DNA of 22,064 nt from contig QAXH01001025.1 of NCBI GenBank assembly GCA_004335635.1, positions 1 through 22,064 of the forward strand. The letters run 5' to 3'. Of this stretch, positions 2,255 through 22,064 are shown piece by piece. The position numbers and the translations under genes are program-made. Positions within the stretch are counted from its first letter, which is position 1. Each line of letters opens with the position of its first letter. Source of the DNA: Chloromonas sp. AAM2 (taxonomy: Eukaryota > Chlorophyta > Chlorophyceae > Chlamydomonadales > Chlamydomonadaceae). The notes beneath the pieces are model-generated. The model was given only the letters and a program-made list of their open reading frames with translations. It was not told the origin of the DNA and did no database searches.

Positions 2255-5200
2255 ATGGGCGTGGCCATGGCGCCCCACCAGCACGGCGAGGTCGTGGGAG
2301 TGGGAGTGGCGCACTCTGGGGTCATTGGCAGCCTACAGAGCACTGCCACACTGGTGAGAACTGGGATGCTGCTGCCCGGTCTGGTCAGAAGCAGCCACAA
2401 ATCTGTCAATACTGTGAGCCATTGCCCACTGGTTCATACCTACCCATCCACATGCTCAGAATCAACCACAATTCGGCACACGCATGACCTGGCCCAGGCA
2501 GCACGCAGCACAGTGACATGGCATATGCATAGTGCTGATTTTGAGAATGATGGACACATACAGTCACATGGGTTAGTGTAAGCCATGGAAAGGTGCAAAA
2601 AGTAGCTCTCTCACCTTGTAGAACAGTCACACAGGTGCTTTGGTGCATGACAGCACCAAGGCAGTCAACAAATCAATCTACCAGGAGCATGCCACTTGAA
2701 TACAACACATGCAGTGTGCGGAGAAGCATGGGCTGTGTGCTTGTATGCAGTGAGATGGAAGGCGCCATTGCAGCATTGATGCAAACTCACATAGTAAACC
2801 TACTGAACAGTGGCATGAACTGGCATATTTCATCTGGCACCACCATCGCATCCCAGTGACGTGATGCACCTGTGCAGATGGCCTTCAGCTGCCTTGTTTG
2901 TACCCCGCAGGTCAACTGCATGTGTGGTGCCGGTCTGGTGGCGCTGCCCTTCTGCTTCTTCAGCTGCGGTGTGGGGCTGGCGCTGGTGACCATGCTCGTG
3001 TCCATGTTGGCGTGCAGGTGACTGGGCACACACATGCAGCCCTAATGCATGGCAGCCTGTGAGCAGTAGCATTCAAAAGACCACAGCAGTTTCTGTACAC
3101 TATATCAGGTTGGGTGATACGAGCGGGCTTCAATAGGCAGTCCTGGAAACGCTCAATTGCAACTCTGTCTGCCTGACGTACACACAACCACAGTTCATGC
3201 GTGGCCACACATTCTGGTGTTCTTGGTCTGCTGCAGGTTCTCGTTCAGCCTGCTTCTGAGCTGTCGCCAACTGTCCAACCGCAAATCATATGAGGTGTGA
3301 CTTGTTTTTGCTAGCTTCACAACATATGGAGCAGTGCTCCGCAGTCTTAGAACTCATCGAGTCTTAGAACTCCTCAAAACAACATGCTAGCCCTTAAACC
3401 ACTTACAAATCATGCCAGTAGTGCGTCACCACTCAAGTTGCGTCATGAGCAGCACTTGTCAAGTTAAGTCGAGTCAAGTGACGTGCAGATGCATACAAAA
3501 CACTGGTTTGTGGAAAGGCACACAAAGCGTGGGTCCGTCAGACTTCACTATCAAGTGCTTCAGCGCAAGGGTTAGCAAAAAAAAGTTTTTTTTGTTGCTC
3601 AGCTATTCTTGACATGCATGAACGCCATTCGCAGCTCGTGATGTCTTGATGTAATTTGCTGTTACGCTGCATGTATTAATGCCAGGCAAGCTTGATGGCT
3701 ACTCAGCCCGTGCCAGATGTCTGACAGGAGCCCGCTGCCAATGCTCCACATGAACTGCGATTTTCCAGCCAAAGTCCAGCCAAAGTCTGCTCCTTGGCAT
3801 GAACTGGTTTGGTTTGCCTCATGTGTCGTTTGCTTTCGTTGTCATACGCTTACTGTCCGTGTCACGTCTGTTTTCGCAGGAGCTTGCTGAGCAAACACTG
3901 GGCGTTGCAGGCCGCCAGTGTGTGCGCTGGTGCGAGGCTGCTTTAAATCTGGGAACCACTGTAGGTGGCAATGATGTTCACAGAGTGTGAGCGGTTCTGG
4001 GCAGCAGATAGCAGGTTGAAAGCGCCAAGCATCAAAGCGCTTCAGTGGCTTAAATACTCTTTGGGTGTCTAGTTGAAAAACAGGGCGAATTGGTTTGTAG
4101 TAGCGTACAATCTCAAGCAGCAATGGAGGAGAGGATGGTTTGCATCGCGCGCAAGTGTACGGAAGGACGGACAGGCTGCCGCAGGCTGTGACAGCTCCAT
4201 TACCAGACGCTGGAGTTGCATTAGGCTGGGATTGTCAAGCTGCTGAGGGATGCCAGGCTTGATGAGGCGGTCAAGGCTGTTGTCCTAGGCGCCAGGTTGA
4301 TGACCTGTCGAGTGTGCGTGTGGGCGCCAGCTTGATGTCAGAATGTGCGCGTGCGGGCGCCAGGTTGATGTCCTGTCGAGTGTGCGTGTGGGCGCAGGTG
4401 GCTCACCTGAATATCCTGGCCGATGTCCTGTCGTCGGTGGCGGGCTCACTGATCCCTCCAGGTGCAGAGCCATCACGCCAAGCGTACGTGACAGGTACGC
4501 CTACTTGGTGTGCATACGGGGACATGACACGCTTCGTGTGATGACATGCATCGCATACTTTGCAAGGGTTTGCTTCCCATCTCACTTTGGTTGCATACTG
4601 AGGCAGAATCAGAGCAGACAGTGCAGATGGGCACGTGTCAGCAATTATAGTTGGTAAGAGAGTTGTCTGCAGGTGTTATCTGGTGAAGCATTCCGAATGG
4701 GCTCTCGTGCGCATGAGACTTGCTTGCAGTGACTGGCATCTATTCCGCATCAGGCAAGCAGTATGCTCAGGAGTACCGGCAGTGGCCGCAGGAAGACTGC
4801 CGCACTGCTTGAGTCAGTGCAGACTGCCTGAATGCTGTTTCAGGCGTCACAATCCTGGGTGCCCTGCCTGTGGCTGTGTTGGTGCGGGACCCGCGCTCCG
4901 TGTCGGCGCTATCTACTGCCAGCGTGGTGTTTGTGTTCGCCTTTGCCACGGCGTGTGTTATCATGGCGCTGTCATCACCCTCTGCAGCAGGTACAGGGAA
5001 TGCATAATGTGACAGGAGTAGCAGTAGCCAGTGCCTTGACATGTAATGAGTGTATGTGAGCGCTGTGGGGCACTAATACGAAGTAAACCAACTTTGCCCC
5101 AGGCGTTCAAATAATGATTGCGGCATCGTTCGGGAGGCGTAAACTTGCAGATAGTCGAGTCACCTGCTATCTGCAGATCTATCGGAGCTTGATGCCTGGC

Positions 5201-8200: not shown

Positions 8201-11200
8201 ATGCGGCGCTCCTGGGAGTGGCGGCGAAGGGGAGCCATCGTGCTGCTGGTCTTTGGACTCATCACCGGCGTGGTGCGTGCGGGTGATGGTTCCTGCACGA
8301 TCCGGCCAGGTACCATGGTGCTCAATGCCACAGCGGAACCAACGCATGGCCCAACACAGCCCAGGGCAAGATGTAGCCGTTGGCCGACTTGGCACCGCCC
8401 AATTTAGTGTTCTTATGTTTGTATGAGTGCAGCTGACCCTTGCGCCACTGTGCATGCAGGTTTGTACGGCTGCTGTGCTGGGTGCAGTGCAGGAGGAAGC
8501 TGCGGTGGTCCAGCTAGCTCAGGTACACATGGCTGGCACAGCTGCAATAGTCAAGATTACAAGATTACAATAGTCATATCCTTGATATCATAGGATCATG
8601 CCAAGCCAAGTTGGTCAAGCCTTGCTACAACAAGTTTACCTTGCTTGCTTGCTTGCTTGATTGATTGATTGATTGGTTAATTGATTGATTGATTGATTTG
8701 TTACATCAGGGAAGCCGTCGAAGGTCACATGGCGGCATGTGTACCGGCCTGACATGCCCTGAGCAAGAAATAAGAAGAAAGGCAGGGAGATAGGCAGAGC
8801 GAGCGCAAAGAGGGCAACTGCAGGAGATAAGCCTACTTTGGCAAACACAAAGAGGATTGCCAAGCTCGTCTGCTTGCTAAAGTTTTGGCACGTACCTTGT
8901 CTGTTTGCCAAAAGCATCACACATTTGGGCATAGAAGTTGGAGTGCAAAGTTTGTCTAAAACGTGGTACCTTGTTGTCTGGGCTGTAGGAGCTGGTTGGG
9001 GCTGAGGCCGTGGCCCAACAGACCGCCGAGGGGCGGGCTAAGGCGCAGCAGGCGCTCACCACCGTAGCGGCAGTGGAAGCAGCAGCAGCACAGCTTAATG
9101 CAGCACAGATAGAAGCAAACAGCACTATGGACAGGTGGGTTTTTACTTCACATCGATACAATGCTCATGCCTACCACTACCTACCTAAAAATATGGTGTC
9201 TTTGCCACACTGATGGACAGGGTTGGCATTGATGCCTGGGTCCAATTTTCACAGTATGTGTAGGCATTGATGTAAGCTTTAATCATTACAAGGCTCAAGC
9301 CCAGGCCTCACTGCGAATCCTATGAAAAGCTCCGTCAAGTGCACGCAGTTTACGCATTTATCGCAAATAAGGCAACTTTGCCACGCTGTCAATCAGGGTT
9401 CGCAGCGACCTACGCGGCCAACTTTCACAGTATGCATAGGGAATGATGTCAACTTCACACAGAAGAAGTACCAAGTCCATACGTCATCGCTAACCTTACG
9501 AAAGGCCCGTTAAGAGCACGCAGTCATCGCAGTCATCGATGTGCAGAAATCAAGTGTTTCACAGTTTCAAGATTGCGGTTGAGCATGCGGTCGTGTCCAC
9601 GATCATCATATGCATTACTGCTACTACCCGGAAGACCCAACGCAGCCACCGCACAAGTCGCACTCGGTGCACGCACCCTGCGCGAACACTCCATGCTCTC
9701 ACTTTCCCGTATGCAATCATGCAGTTTGACAGGGCAGTTACTACGAGGCTCAGCGCAGCCAGCGCACCCGCCACAGTCCCAGCACGTTGAGTGCTCTGAC
9801 TGATACTTTAGCCAACCACCTCTCGAGGTGCTTGGCTAGTTCTGCACTTGCTTTCCAAGCTGTGCATTTGGCTGCGGTGGCTGTCAGCTGACCTTGGGAC
9901 GGACAATCCCAGCTGCTTGGCCATGCGCCGGATGTAGGAGATGACGTCCAGTGCCCGCAGGTACCCCAGCACTTGCATGAGCGTGGCCTTGAAGCCAGCA
10001 CCATTGGTGATGCACCAGAACTCATTTTCAATGTCGTCTGTGCTGAGGGACTGCTCCACCATGTGCTGGCCAGCTGCAGGCAGCATGCACAGGAGATGCA
10101 TACGCGCCTCCACATTGCACATGTCCACCCACTAGATTTTTGCTGTGAAGCCGGCGATGCGGTTGTGGCAGCTGGCCAAATGGCTGCTGCAATTGTCCGT
10201 CAGCTGCATATACAGGTGGCAGCTGATGATGCGACGGTTCTCTAGCCTGATGGTACGGGAGACACTGTCCATGCCTGGCATGTCCCACGCCTGGTGGGCG
10301 TGGCCCAGCACACGCAGGTCCAGAGCATCCTGACCAAACCCAAGGCACAGCAAGGCGACCTGCAGTTCCTGGCTGGTGAACAGAAGCTGGACTATCGGCA
10401 CTTTCTGGTTGTCCTGAAGGCCAGCTTCAGCTGCTCCGGAAATGCTTCAGCAGCCTGATGGAGTGTATCCAAATTCAGCTGGTTGTTGTTCTGGCTCAAC
10501 AGATAGCTTTGGGAGCTTCACAAGCTGCTGATACAAGTGGGCTGACAGGCAAGGTCCTTCCTGCCACTTGGGTGTTGAAGATGGATGGAAGGCCAGTAGC
10601 TTGGCCCAAACAGGCACCTTCAGCACACCACGGAGCTTTCTTGCAACACCTATCTGCTGCTGCAGGTGTCTGCTGTTCTGACGCAAGCACCTTTGGCACA
10701 AGCAGGCTGGTGAAAACATGGCAGAAGGGCTGTGATGGGTCCATGGGGCAAGCACCACATGATTAGTGGTCTTGTAGAGTTGAAGACCACGCCATTTGCG
10801 TTGGAAAGGCTCGCAATCACATGCAAAGCATGCTGTAGGGTCTGGCATGGCCGCAAGGTTGCGATTTGGGTCAGAACCCTAGTGCCGATTATCAGTTCGG
10901 GACCATCGGGATCACCTCAGGGCGTAAAAACTTGGCAAGCACTTTGTTACATGCGCAGACAGTCGCAAAAGACGGCATCGCCAGAGCTGCTGCCGTTCCC
11001 GAGTTCCTCAGAATAATGACCGTTTGACAGGAGTGATAGGCATGTGGACACAATGCGATACGTTGCTTTGCTCCCCCAACGCGTTCTCGAGGCTAGGTCA
11101 AGGTTTTCACCCAGTTGGGGGTCTGGCTCTGGCCATCCTCGTCGCTCTGTCGAGCAGCGAGCTGAAGTTCACGAAGTCGCAAGGCTCTAGGATAGAGGTC

Positions 11201-14200
11201 ACGGATCCTTCGATCCTCTCGAGCATCCACGAGATGTGGATCTGCGACACGTCGATCTTCTGCTCGGTCGGAGCCGCAACCAAGTGGCCTCGCCTCGACT
11301 TGAACACGAAATGGGGCTACGAGTGGATCTTCTTCCCCTGCACCATGAAGCGCAGCGGGACCTCCCGCCTCTTGATCGCCTCCAGGGTGCAGACGAACAG
11401 GACGCATTCTCCGTCTGCAAGCTGCACGAGCCCTCCATGATCCTCTTCATCGCCATGGTCGCGACCTCCTTCGCGATCGCGAGCGAGTCCTTCCTCACCG
11501 GTGCAAGACCCTTAATCTCCATCTTGCCCGAGAAGTCCAAACAGCAGTACTTCTTCTTGCTCGTGATGATGATGCTCTTGAACAATCTCGTGATCTCTGC
11601 CTTGATGCCCGCAAGGGGCATGCCGCTCGTCTCCTTGTCGATCTGCTTCACGATGACGTTCCCGGTGGCTTCAGCCTCCTCGGAGCCCTCAGCGTTGATG
11701 GCAACGACGACCGAGTCCGTGTCGCCGTAGATCGCCTTGAACCCCATCCTCTCCGTCACCCTGACCATCGTCGCCAAGCAGACCCTGGCGACAAACGTCA
11801 TGGCTTCCGAGCAGCTCTTGGACAAGAGAATTTCGTGCCTGCTCACCATCGCGCCGTAGAAGCTGATTGCCCGCTGCATCGCCCATAGAAGCTGACTGCC
11901 CGCTGCATTGCCTCGTCCTTGCGCGCGAACGCCGCCTTCCTGAGCACGATGACCGACTTGGTGCTCTTCGAGAAGATGTTTGACCCCTTCCTGTCGATCG
12001 CGATGAAGCTCTCCCTGGTCCTCATCACGACCACCTGTTGTCCCAGGCCAGAGACCCGATCTTCATTAACTCGCTGGCGATCGGGATGCCGAGCTTGAAG
12101 GAAATCTGCTTGACGCTGAAGCCCGAGGCGCAGGTGTTCACAAAGACCAGTTGAATCGCCGGTCCTCCTTCTAATTTCTGTCTCAGCCTACTGCATTCGT
12201 CTCATTTGACAACAAGCACGCTCTCCATGCTGATGATTCTATCCAGCTGCAGAAGGTTCGGTTTTACTGTAGATCTGCTTCATACGACTTGCGCACCAGT
12301 ACGCTAGCTGCAATATCCTCCCATGTCACCCTGTTATGCCACCCTGCTTGTCCCAACCCACAGATTGAATCAGGCAGCCGCCTCACTTCACCGCTTCACA
12401 AACAGGGGCGGAGTTGAGGGCATAGACGGCCCACCGCGACCGCCAGGCAGCGAGGATGCTGGGGGGAGCGCAGCCAGCGGCTGGGGTCTCAACACATGGG
12501 TGGAGGAGCATAAGCAAGAAAGAGCGGACAGCAAAACGCTCAAAGGAGTGAGTCATACTGCCAGGATAAGCCGAGTAACTGGCAGCTCTGCTCTTCATCA
12601 GTGGCATGGACAAGTCAGCACACATTTCGCATCAGATGTCTGACACTTCCTCTTCTACGCATCTTGTTCTCCTGCAGCAATGCCAAGCTGTAGATTGTGT
12701 TGCCGTACTGCTGCTCAGGTGGAAGCTCAGCTGCACGTGGCCAAGGCACAGGTGGGTGATCACTGCCATGCCTTGTTGGTATTAGGGACTTTAAAAAGTG
12801 ATCAATTGGTAAAGACGCCCCCAGACCCGCCTCCAGGTGTTGCAAGTATTCAAAGGTCCTTGCAACGCTCTGCGCACGAATCGGAAGGTTTTGACGGAAG
12901 GTTTTCCCGGGGAAGCTGGCCAGAAGCTGAGTCAATTTGTTGATGTCAATACATGCAGGTTGCCACCTCAGCTGGCATGATTCGTGATATCATCAAGCAG
13001 CTGGACGCTGCCAGGGAGGCCCTGAAGCAGGAGCAAGAGGCAGCGGTTGCTGTAGCCAACGCCACCGCTGAGGCAGAAGCAGCTGGCTCCAGCACCGGCA
13101 GCAGCGGTACCGGTGATGGACCGTCTGCAGCACGCCTAAGGGCTAAGAAGGTTGCATCAGAACTGTCAAAAACGTTGCAGTTGTATGGGGCTGGTGGAGG
13201 AGGGCGCGGCAGCGGAGGTGGAGGGCGAGGGAGTGATGGTGCGGAGGCAGCGCCCCCACCGCCTGGTGGCAGGCCTCTGGAGCAAGTGCGTGCGAATGCG
13301 GTAGCCACCCTCGCCGCGCTGCAAGAAACTGCCACAGTATTGAATAAGGTGGGGATACAGCGGTTTCAGCTCTCTTGCCACCTGTGGGCGGATTGTTTGT
13401 CCCCGGCTGTCATATGGAGTGATCTAGGAGCCACTCCCTTTTCACAAGAGACGTGTTACATGGGCTCGGCATTTGTTGACGTACCACCGCGTGTGTACAC
13501 TGCAAGCTAGTTTTGGCAAGGAATTATTTGAAATCCCAGGCTTGCCCGAATCAAGACGTTGGCGAGAGAGCTGGAGTCTTCGCTTGTGCAGCTTGCCCGT
13601 GTACTCAATCAGGCTTGTGTCCAACCCGCAGGTGTCGGACACGATTGCCTCTGCTCGGCTTGCAAGCCATAAGGACGTGGAAGTGCGACGTGAGGCGGCG
13701 GCCGCCATGGCTGAGGCCCTCAACGCCAGTGCCACCTCCGGCCTAGCTCTCACCATCACGCAGCAGGTGCTGGCTGCAAGTGCCAGTCAAGAGGCGGACG
13801 AACTGATTGCTGCACTCACAAAGGTAACCAGCACCTCAGACAGGAAGCTGAGGCGTGGATGGTCGATCATTGAATAAGCACAGCACGTCCAAGGTCTGTT
13901 GTGCCCATACTCGACGTTGTGCATTTTCCTGCAGAAACGGCGGTTTCAATGCTTTACGACTGCTCAGGGATCAGCGATTGGCCGGCTTTGTTCATTCACC
14001 TGCTGGATTTTGTTCAGTCAGAAACTGCATATGGGCTGTGTATTGATCTGATGCCTACATGCTGTCTCAGGTGGCATCTGATCTGCAACTGGCCCGGAGC
14101 AAGGGCGGCACGGTGGGCGCTAGGCTAGTCAGCAGCCCACCTCCCCCGCTTTCTTTCCCTCCACCTACAGACACCTTGCCTCTCCCGCCCAGCAGCGATC

Positions 14201-20303: not shown

Positions 20304-21072
20304 AGCTGTAGCGCATCAGCAAGGCTGTCCCACCATGACAAGCGTACAGTTGAACTGTAGAGGGCTGCAGACCCTAGAGATGTGTGCACAATCATTGAGT
20401 GCTTATAATTGTGGTGTACTTTAAGTGGACCTAGTGGCCTCTAGTTGGAGCGTGTCCACTTGCAAAGCGTAGCGCTTGAGCTATTATGGGGTCCGTCAAG
20501 CAGCATAAGCCAAGCATGAGGAAATGGTTTCAATCTGAGCCGTTCTTGGTCATCGCAAGTTTATGGCAAGTATATGATTGTTCGACAGACAAGAGTACCT
20601 GCTTGTGGCAGTCAAGGACTGTGCATCCCTTCAGTATTTTTTCATCCTTGAATACTACACTTATCCTCATATACTGGCCTGCTTATCCTCACCAGTTCGA
20701 CTGTGGTGTTTTTCATGATGTAGCTTGCGTAGCGCTAACATTTCATGCCTTATGCAGGGCGGTTCAAGCTGCATTGCACAGAGCCAACTGAAGCAAGTGA
20801 AGACGTAGGCGCTGTCACTGTCCTTTTCTTACAATCTGCGTACAAGTTGAGCACGGTCAGCACACCACCGGCTTGTGAAGCCCGGTTAACATACGGACGG
20901 GCGGCATCTGATATCATATCAATGATTGCGCCCCGCAAGGGCCAGTACCCAAAGGACGATTGAGCTGCCCACAGCTGCCTGTAGTTGCTGTAGAGTAGAA
21001 TGCGTCGTGGGAGTTGCTTGTGCACTGGGCAGACAAAATGTTGTTCAACATATCATGTCAATTCTCCAAGGA

Positions 21073-21108
21073 CGCGTCCGTTTCTTAGGTACTGCCGCGT
21101 CCGTTTCT
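21073..21108. repeat. 13-bp direct repeat, 23-bp period
   Basis: cgcgtccgtttct occurs at 21073-21085 and again at 21096-21108. No function is visible. Confidence 0.7.
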
Positions 21109-21333
21109 CACTGCACGAACGTGAGAAAACATGCTGATACCATTTAAGCGGCAACCGTTTCTGTGCTCCTGTTGCTGGCTTGCGAGATTACAAGGAGCTT
21201 CTTTGATCTCACAGTCGTCGTTTTCCCGTCGTCGGTGATCATGATTCCAGGTGCTGGAGTGGTGCTGATTTGCGAAAGTCGAAGGACACACGCAACCAGA
21301 TACTTTCATTAGACAACCGGGCCCTTCGATCTT

Positions 21334-21351
21334 AAGAACAAGCTTGTTCTT
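21334..21351. repeat. 18-bp perfect palindrome
   Basis: aagaacaagcttgttctt equals its own reverse complement, with a HindIII site at its centre. It could be a dimeric protein binding site, a hairpin, or the remains of a foldback element. Nothing nearby tells which. Confidence 0.7.
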
Positions 21352-21439
21352 CCATCAGCGCTGGCCGAACAGAATGGCCAAGTAAACCACCCCGCCTGCA
21401 TTAATCCCACAACTCGTGAGCGTCACGTTTGTTTGACAG

Positions 21440-21498
21440 GCTGGAACTACGGTGACCTGCCCTATTTCCGATCGTCCCAGTATCCGATCATCGGATAA
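21440..21498 (+). pseudogene. Possible terminal exon or element remnant ending YPIIG-stop
   Basis: After a gtttgacag acceptor-like site, a frame reads WNYGDLPYFRSSQYPIIG and stops at TAA (21496-21498). The end resembles the minus-strand frame near 15.5 kb at both protein and DNA level: tgccctatttccg and gtatccgatca are shared, and the stop falls at the same place. The difference between them is nine bases, which keeps the frame. I do not know the family, and no upstream exon is clear. Confidence 0.3.
21481..21497. repeat. Interrupted palindrome tatccgat-c-atcggata
   Basis: Eight-base arms flank a single C. It overlaps the end of the possible terminal exon. The left arm is part of the sequence shared with 15507-15540, but the right arm is not conserved in that copy. 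Confidence 0.6.
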
Positions 21499-22064
21499 AG
21501 GGGCTGTCACTGCACTTCTGCCTAGTCGTGGCCTTTCCCCTAACGGGCGGCTTTTGGAAGGCAGTCCGCGGGGTGACCACTGGAGTGGTAACTAACAGCC
21601 GCTGACCAATGAGGGATCCTCTTTACCTGATGCCTAACTTCTTATCTCTCCATCCCTTGGACAAGTTTGTGGCCTAACTCTCCCTTCATATAATACCACA
21701 GCAACCCTGTCAAGTGCAACAGCCAGCCTTCTGACAGCATTCGTTCAGTCAACAAAAACCTCATAGCGCCTCTGATGCCACCAGGGCAACATTCAATCAA
21801 TCAAGCAGGGCAACATTTGCGTCAAAAGCTAGAAATAAAGTTGCATCTGGTTGCAACAAAATTGTTTGATTGTGTACTTAAGACATTCCTTCAGGTGACA
21901 TGATTGGGCGTGGTCCGCCTTCTGTTTTGACATGTCTTGATCAACCCTGCTGGGTGGAGCTGGCTAGCTGTTGATACTGACTATGATCTACAACACACCT
22001 AGATACTGGCTAAAATCCCAAACCTCAAGTCTGCCAGGCACACACGCTGAAGGCTTCGTGCTAC

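What the first reader, a model, noticed from the sequence alone, without database searches (positions are those of the whole stretch)
11090..12170. Fossil of a large-DNA-virus-type family B polymerase inside an algal gene intron
The minus strand keeps YGDTDS (motif C), a SFYGAM motif B-like segment and the KKKYCCLDF / KGLAPVRKD block, but is broken by at least three frame changes and a stop. It has no introns, unlike every confident multi-exon neighbour, and lies antisense in an oversized intron. The likely explanation is past integration of a viral genome or viral fragment (giant virus, mirusvirus or herpes-like lineage) that has since decayed.
Basis: partly seen in the sequence, partly recalled or inferred. 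Interest (0 to 1): 0.75.

Follow-up and report, generated by a model that had tools for sequence, protein, structure and literature searches.

The report
Broken foreign DNA-polymerase fragment in intron
A green alga carries, apparently inside one of its introns, the decayed end piece of a DNA-copying enzyme that does not match its own polymerases and probably came from a virus-like invader, although which kind of virus cannot be told from a piece this short.

Summary
One 151-residue open block (window 11427-11879, minus strand) is a family B DNA polymerase, motif B to the thumb (Pfam DNA_pol_B, E 9.1e-20). It is damaged, single-copy and antisense in a predicted ~3.8-kb intron. Host pol delta, alpha and zeta lie on other contigs as exon-split genes. 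The contig is algal: a host repeat abuts the fragment, so contamination is unlikely.

"Foreign, virus-like" is the best reading, not proven. For: a 16-residue KKxY-to-G linker, against 21-24 in the host, human and yeast delta, alpha and zeta sequences tested; in the larger tree it falls outside those clades. Against or open: archaeal PolB3 and pol alpha match it better than herpesvirus; constrained trees were not rejected; GC3 is host-like; capsid, VLTF3 and terminase profiles found nothing, but had no positive control. A delta-type giant virus is disfavoured, not excluded. Mirusvirus and herpes-like origins could not be put in a tree. Word- or pattern-limited searches of protein, prokaryote, phage, plasmid and viral-contig collections found no close relative. 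A relic of an unsampled virus-like lineage fits best (0.6).

The parts
11427..11879 (-). Core of the relic: open 151-codon block of a family B DNA polymerase, from motif B (SFYG) through motif C (YGDTDS) to KKKY and the start of the thumb
   Evidence: Pfam PF00136 E 9.1e-20 within ORF 11199-12062; NCBIfam TIGR00592 3.6e-18, 65 bits, below its whole-protein cut-off of 240; AlphaFold2 model pLDDT 77.8 matches PolB palms
11848..11905 (-). Imperfect tandem duplication of about 29 bp that repeats the SFYG-coding segment and shifts the frame
   Evidence: 21 of 29 identical without gaps; sequence read directly
11107..11440 (-). Probable remnant of the thumb and C-terminus in another frame, with an in-frame TAG at 11317-11319; open to a stop at 11107-11109
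   Evidence: weak support only: 11143-11262 at E 3.9 with one of three thumb profiles
11880..12165 (-). Coding-like DNA 5' of the core (pieces in two other frames); assignment to the polymerase is inference, motif A not found
   Evidence: CpG observed/expected of 11100-12165 is 1.02 against 0.63 for the window; no homology hit
9164..11046 (.). Host interspersed repeat (DNA-transposon-like, ends CTCATGCC/GGCATGTG) that abuts the relic
   Evidence: 52 of 60 other matches to 9200-12990 fall here, 7 of them end at 11046-11048 (best candidates only); blastn; ends
9155..9163 (+). Target-site duplication, left copy GATACAATG
11047..11055 (+). Target-site duplication, right copy GACACAATG (8 of 9)
9135..12958 (+). 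Predicted intron of the plus-strand host gene that holds repeat and relic (donor GT at 9135 or 9139, acceptor AG at 12957-12958)
   Evidence: read by eye from open frames 8989-9213 and 12944-13510 and GT/AG sites; no transcript evidence

Best explanation
This is the decayed 3' part of a family B DNA polymerase gene, intronless in the part kept, that came into the alga's nuclear genome with the DNA of a large virus or virus-like element of an unsampled lineage. It landed antisense in an intron, where it is presumably spliced out and harmless. It has lost its front half including motif A, and has gathered a duplication, frame damage and a stop. A host repeat sits next to it. It makes no working enzyme now. 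Shown: the polymerase homology, the damage, the single copy, the host setting and the difference from host delta, alpha and zeta. Inferred: the viral source, the integration and the splicing out.
For: PolB homology E 9.1e-20. Searching the genome with the fragment finds only itself, by protein and, apart from 48 bp of the repeat flank, by DNA. Host pol delta (C1990), alpha (C1697) and zeta (C434) are split into exons by my reading; joined host zeta exons score 239 bits to yeast zeta, the fragment at most 49.6 bits to any PDB chain. Linker KKxY to G: fragment 16; 120 of 121 proteins on hand (the 120 listed, a delta set, plus one host exon) could be called, all 21; host delta 21, alpha 22, zeta 22; human and yeast references 21-24. 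Starred branches keep the fragment out of alpha, delta, zeta and delta+zeta+L145. Its branch is long (3.4 and 1.5 changes per site) although its motifs are kept, which I would not expect of a young host pseudogene. PolB-only viral regions are reported in Rhizophagus (PMC10640383, passages). This genome also holds virus-like elements: a D5 primase-helicase ORF and polinton-type PolB traces.
Against: Nearest matches are archaeal PolB3 and eukaryotic pol alpha, not viral ones; herpesvirus scores lower. The smaller tree puts it beside pol alpha (95/72, not starred). Constrained trees with host alpha, delta or zeta are not rejected (p-AU 0.27, 0.185, 0.087). GC3 0.89 is like host exons' 0.85, so codon use does not mark it as foreign. 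None of 14 other window pieces between 8989 and 14931 matched a Pfam family above its cut-off; the rest of the contig was not scanned that way. Capsid, VLTF3 and herpes-type terminase profiles found nothing in the genome (no positive control).
Confidence: 0.6

Rival explanations
1. Relic of a divergent cellular polymerase of the alga: an old pol-alpha-like paralogue, or a retrocopy that lost its introns and decayed.
For: Highest aligned identity is to human pol alpha (33.7% over 98 columns; host alpha 28.6%); sister to alpha at 95/72 in the smaller tree; host-like GC3; AU tests do not reject it.
Against: It is closer to human than to host alpha, so no recent copy of host alpha; it lacks the longer linker of the alpha, delta and zeta sequences tested; very long branch with intact motifs; the larger tree keeps it out of the alpha pair at 100/99; no second copy in the genome.
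Confidence: 0.15
2. Prokaryotic DNA: an archaeal- or phage-type PolB taken up by horizontal transfer, or a contaminating stretch.
For: Best PDB matches are Thermococcales PolB3 (E 3.4e-12); the linker of 16 is that of all 11 archaeal loci that could be called and of 12 viral-collection loci; the assembly seems to hold prokaryote-like contigs such as C1205 (inference).
Against: Best prokaryotic identity is 31% over the block (35% over 52 residues); phages at most 38.5% over 40% of it; plasmids at most 26.4% in the 10 rows listed of 22; the contig carries host-type exons and a host repeat.
Confidence: 0.13
3. Fragment of a polinton-like, plasmid or transposon polymerase carried by a mobile element of the host.
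For: The genome has polinton-type PolB_2 traces and an element with a D5 primase-helicase and a recombinase-like ORF.
Against: The core matches PF00136 and not PF03175; single copy; the adjoining repeat family does not carry the polymerase in the copies seen.
Confidence: 0.06
4. Chance resemblance or artefact.
For: Only 151 codons are strongly matched.
Against: Pfam E 9.1e-20, NCBIfam 3.6e-18, PDB 3.4e-12, and a model that fits PolB palms.
Confidence: 0.01

Closest known systems
Archaeal PolB3 (Thermococcus, Methanothermococcus)
   Same: Palm from motif B to thumb alignable, mostly 25-31% identity, same 16-residue linker
   Different: Far too distant to be the source; the fragment is in an algal intron and damaged
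Eukaryotic DNA polymerase alpha
   Same: About 29-36% identity around motif C and KKKY
   Different: Alpha has a longer linker (22-24) and several exons in this host; a starred branch separates it in the larger tree
Herpesvirus DNA polymerase (UL30)
   Different: Weaker than archaeal and alpha matches; no sequence at hand for a tree
Nucleocytoviricota delta-type PolB (L145, giant-virus type by my reading)
   Same: Same polymerase family; 41% identity over residues 48-112
   Different: Groups with pol delta and zeta, excluding the fragment (100/98); linker 21
PolB-only endogenous viral regions, as in Rhizophagus irregularis (PMC10640383, passages)
   Same: Isolated polymerase genes left in a eukaryote genome
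   Different: Those are attributed to Asfarviridae-like viruses and present in 15-33 copies per genome; this is one unassigned fragment

Membership tests
Family B DNA polymerase (PF00136) | Palm with motif B, motif C (DTD) and KKxY | tested here: met
   E 9.1e-20, profile 163-328; motifs read
Family B DNA polymerase (PF00136) | Complete active site with motif A and an intact frame | tested here: not met
   Match begins at profile position 163; no upstream hit; frame broken on the 5' side. It is a relic, not an enzyme
Host nuclear pol alpha, delta or zeta | KKxY-to-G linker of 21-24 residues | tested here: not met
   Fragment 16
Host nuclear pol alpha, delta or zeta | Tree position inside the clade | tested here: inconclusive
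   Outside by starred branches, but constrained trees not rejected (p-AU 0.09-0.34)
Host pol epsilon | Tree position or similarity | not tested
   No host epsilon locus identified here
Nucleocytoviricota delta-type PolB | Position in the delta/zeta/NCLDV clade | tested here: inconclusive
   Clade with L145 excludes the fragment at 100/98; holding it with L145 p-AU 0.136; only one such sequence at hand
Nucleocytoviricota endogenous element | Other hallmark genes (major capsid, packaging ATPase, VLTF3) | tested here: inconclusive
   No hit for PF04451, PF16903, PF04947, no positive control; PF04665 two hits, both below cut-off; D5_N on another contig
Mirusvirus, herpes-like or EukVir1 PolB | Tree position among these | not testable with these tools
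   Their sequences could not be retrieved; PF02499 terminase no hit, no positive control
Polinton-type or plasmid PolB (PF03175) | Match to DNA_pol_B_2 | tested here: not met
   Only PF00136 listed at E <= 1
Assembly contamination | Contig lacking host DNA | tested here: not met
   Host repeat with 52 other matches and flanking open exon-like frames on the same 22,064-base contig

The most novel reading that the evidence does not exclude
The fragment is a fossil of an undescribed lineage of large DNA virus (or virus-like element) of green algae whose polymerase lies outside the delta-type clade of giant viruses, nearer to archaeal PolB3 and pol alpha, with no sampled living relative.
Probability: 0.22. 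Interest if true: 0.65.

Novelty: new member of a known kind. Interest (0 to 1): 0.34.

Why it matters
Endogenous viral pieces are known from green algae, so one more decayed fragment is no great surprise. It would matter if a well-sampled tree placed it in its own deep branch: it would then record a virus group that metagenomes have missed, and bear on how pol alpha, archaeal and viral polymerases are related. As it stands it is a lead.

Tried and rejected
Protein search of 5.8 billion sequences with the block, unpadded (125 candidates, none at E <= 0.001) and padded with X so that full-length proteins fall in the length range (178 candidates, none at E <= 0.01), found nothing; these searches need shared 5-residue words. 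A search with fragment plus host pol delta returned 6,040 hits among 7,989 scored candidates; of the 120 listed none is named as viral, so it gave no viral references.

Viral-contig scans (7 of 8 used): searches gave no relative; 31 stretches by pattern; 60 loci at 21-41% identity; 20 loci, one of them its own query. Eukaryotic viruses seem nearly absent from that collection: I recognised one (L145, my reading), so a tree against eukaryotic viruses was not possible. Genome-contig scan: 15 loci, best over the block 31%. Phages: 10 records, plasmids: 22 records, all under 60%.
Full report

Damage. A ~29-bp imperfect tandem duplication at 11848-11905 repeats the SFYG segment out of frame. Beyond 11427 the likely thumb continues in another frame and holds an in-frame TAG at 11317-11319. 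In a search of all window pieces of 25 aa or more with a profile of 73 related C-terminal regions, the only two hits at E <= 10 were 11430-11498 (E 4.4, overlapping the core) and 11143-11262 (E 3.9): right place, weak score. An archaeal-only profile (11 sequences) and a pol delta profile (39) did not hit the thumb. Nothing upstream of 11880 got homology support, and motif A is missing. I read this as the 3' part of a gene with the front gone.

Setting. The fragment lies in a predicted intron (donor at 9135 or 9139, acceptor at 12958) between open frames 8989-9213 and 12944-13510 on the plus strand; the splice sites were read by eye. Window 9164-11046 is a host repeat: of 60 other matches to 9200-12990 in the genome (40 of 55 candidates scored), 52 fall in this part, 7 of them ending at 11046-11048, and 8 in 12808-12934. 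The repeat has CATGCC/GGCATG ends and 9-bp flanking repeats GATACAATG and GACACAATG. It therefore seems to have inserted into a continuous sequence just beside the fragment; which came first is not resolved. The fragment itself is unique. Ten window ORFs on both sides gave no Pfam family above its cut-off.

Not a copy of a host polymerase found here. PF00136 finds, besides the fragment, C1990 (delta), C1697 (alpha), C434 (zeta: 239 bits to yeast zeta) and C2313 (delta-like), all split into exons by my reading. Searching the genome with the fragment protein returns only itself. Aligned identity to host alpha is 28.6%, host delta 25.3%, host zeta 18.4%. The linker from KKxY to the next conserved G is 16 residues in the fragment; it is 21 in 120 of 121 proteins on hand (the 120 listed plus one host exon; one not callable), 21-22 in host, human and yeast delta, 22-24 in host and human alpha, 22 in host and yeast zeta, and 16 in KOD and Tgo PolB3. 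Of 75 prokaryotic and viral-collection loci, 51 could be called: 15 in 1, 16 in 23 (11 of them archaeal), 20-25 in 27. The block thus has the shorter linker of archaeal PolB3 and some viral-collection polymerases, which was not seen in these eukaryotic ones.

Trees. With 28 rows the fragment stood beside the two alphas at 95/72, not starred, on a branch of 3.38; holding it with delta, zeta or PolB3 was not rejected (p-AU 0.23, 0.23, 0.12). With 49 rows, including one giant-virus-type polymerase (L145), it moved to an unresolved fork (branch 1.5). Starred branches separate it from the alphas (100/99), delta (98/91), PolB3 (99/99) and delta+zeta+L145 (100/98). Holding it with the alphas, host alpha, host delta, host zeta or L145 gave p-AU 0.34, 0.27, 0.19, 0.09 and 0.14: none rejected. 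The block is too short and too far from everything for a firm place.

Viral or not. Herpesvirus polymerase matches at 2.4e-7, below archaeal and alpha. Among predicted viral structures the ten best rows are at 20-24% identity; those that bear a name are baculovirus, herpesvirus, Medusavirus and Erythrocytic necrosis virus polymerases. Kazlauskas et al. 2020 (PMC7544198; passages, section 18 and part 1 of section 14 seen) put most NCLDV in EukVir2 and Herpesviridae in EukVir3 within the delta-like clade, and cite earlier work grouping alloherpes-, malacoherpes-, pox-, baculo- and nimaviruses apart. PMC12198294 (passages) places mirusviruses and herpesviruses near but outside the delta/NCLDV clade, while PMC10132985 (passages) puts mirusvirus PolB between known NCLDV orders, and PMC12768974 (passages) reports that most okeano- and styxviruses lack a polymerase. 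The fragment's separation from delta+L145 could fit one of the groups outside it, or none; I could not get their sequences. Capsid, VLTF3 and herpes-type terminase profiles found nothing, without a positive control; the packaging-ATPase profile gave two hits below its cut-off. A D5 primase-helicase ORF of 857 aa lies on C549 with a recombinase-like ORF, and polinton-type PolB traces lie on three contigs: virus-like elements occur in this genome, but nothing ties them to this fragment.

Verdict. I hold a foreign, virus-like source at 0.6: no introns in the part kept, single copy, old motifs on a long branch, short linker, embedded in host DNA. The main rival is a divergent alpha-like cellular relic (0.15), then prokaryotic DNA (0.13). 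The giant-virus label of the finding is disfavoured but not excluded; mirus- and herpes-like origins are untested. Endogenous viral remnants in green algae are known (PMC10675990, passages), so this is a new member of a known kind, of moderate interest unless a better tree gives it a branch of its own. My literature searches were not aimed at this locus, and I make no claim that it is unreported.

Noticed in passing
window 9164-11046: Interspersed host repeat with CTCATGCC/GGCATGTG ends and 9-bp flanking repeats; 52 other matches at 69-93% identity. Four minus-strand ORFs in 9750-10878 gave no Pfam family above its cut-off.
   Followed up: partly
window 12808-12934: A second, short repeat family with 8 other matches at 77-95% identity in the genome.
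   Followed up: no
window 21001-21500: Besides the relic, the only 500-bp step of the window with CpG observed/expected near 1 (1.07); I saw no evident gene among its ORFs (not scanned against a library).
   Followed up: partly
window 4288-4327 and 4356-4395: A 40-bp direct repeat, 97.5% identical.
   Followed up: no
L079 and L080 (own-genome contig C549, 20,443 bp): The contig reads largely as one long inverted repeat: the same ORFs appear mirrored. They include an intact 857-aa D5-type primase-helicase (PF08706, PriCT-2) and a 426-aa recombinase-like ORF (PF00589 below cut-off), like a virus-like mobile element.
   Followed up: partly
L075 (C2313:13000-20000): What looks like an extra delta-like, exon-split polymerase gene whose motif C reads YGQTDS instead of YGDTDS, with cysteine clusters near its C-terminus; it may be a non-catalytic paralogue.
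   Followed up: no
C2055:44618-44875, C1940:17276-17500, C1822:38347-38907: Traces of polinton-type PolB (PF03175), two of three over the cut-off.
   Followed up: no
L013 (C1205, 13,566 bp): Compact ORFs one after another without obvious introns and high CpG look prokaryotic or phage-like; possibly a contaminating contig in the assembly.
   Followed up: no
L145 (IMGVR_UViG_3300042875_001020): A 1,259-aa PolB that I read as giant-virus type, the only eukaryotic-virus polymerase I recognised in the viral-contig collection.
   Followed up: partly
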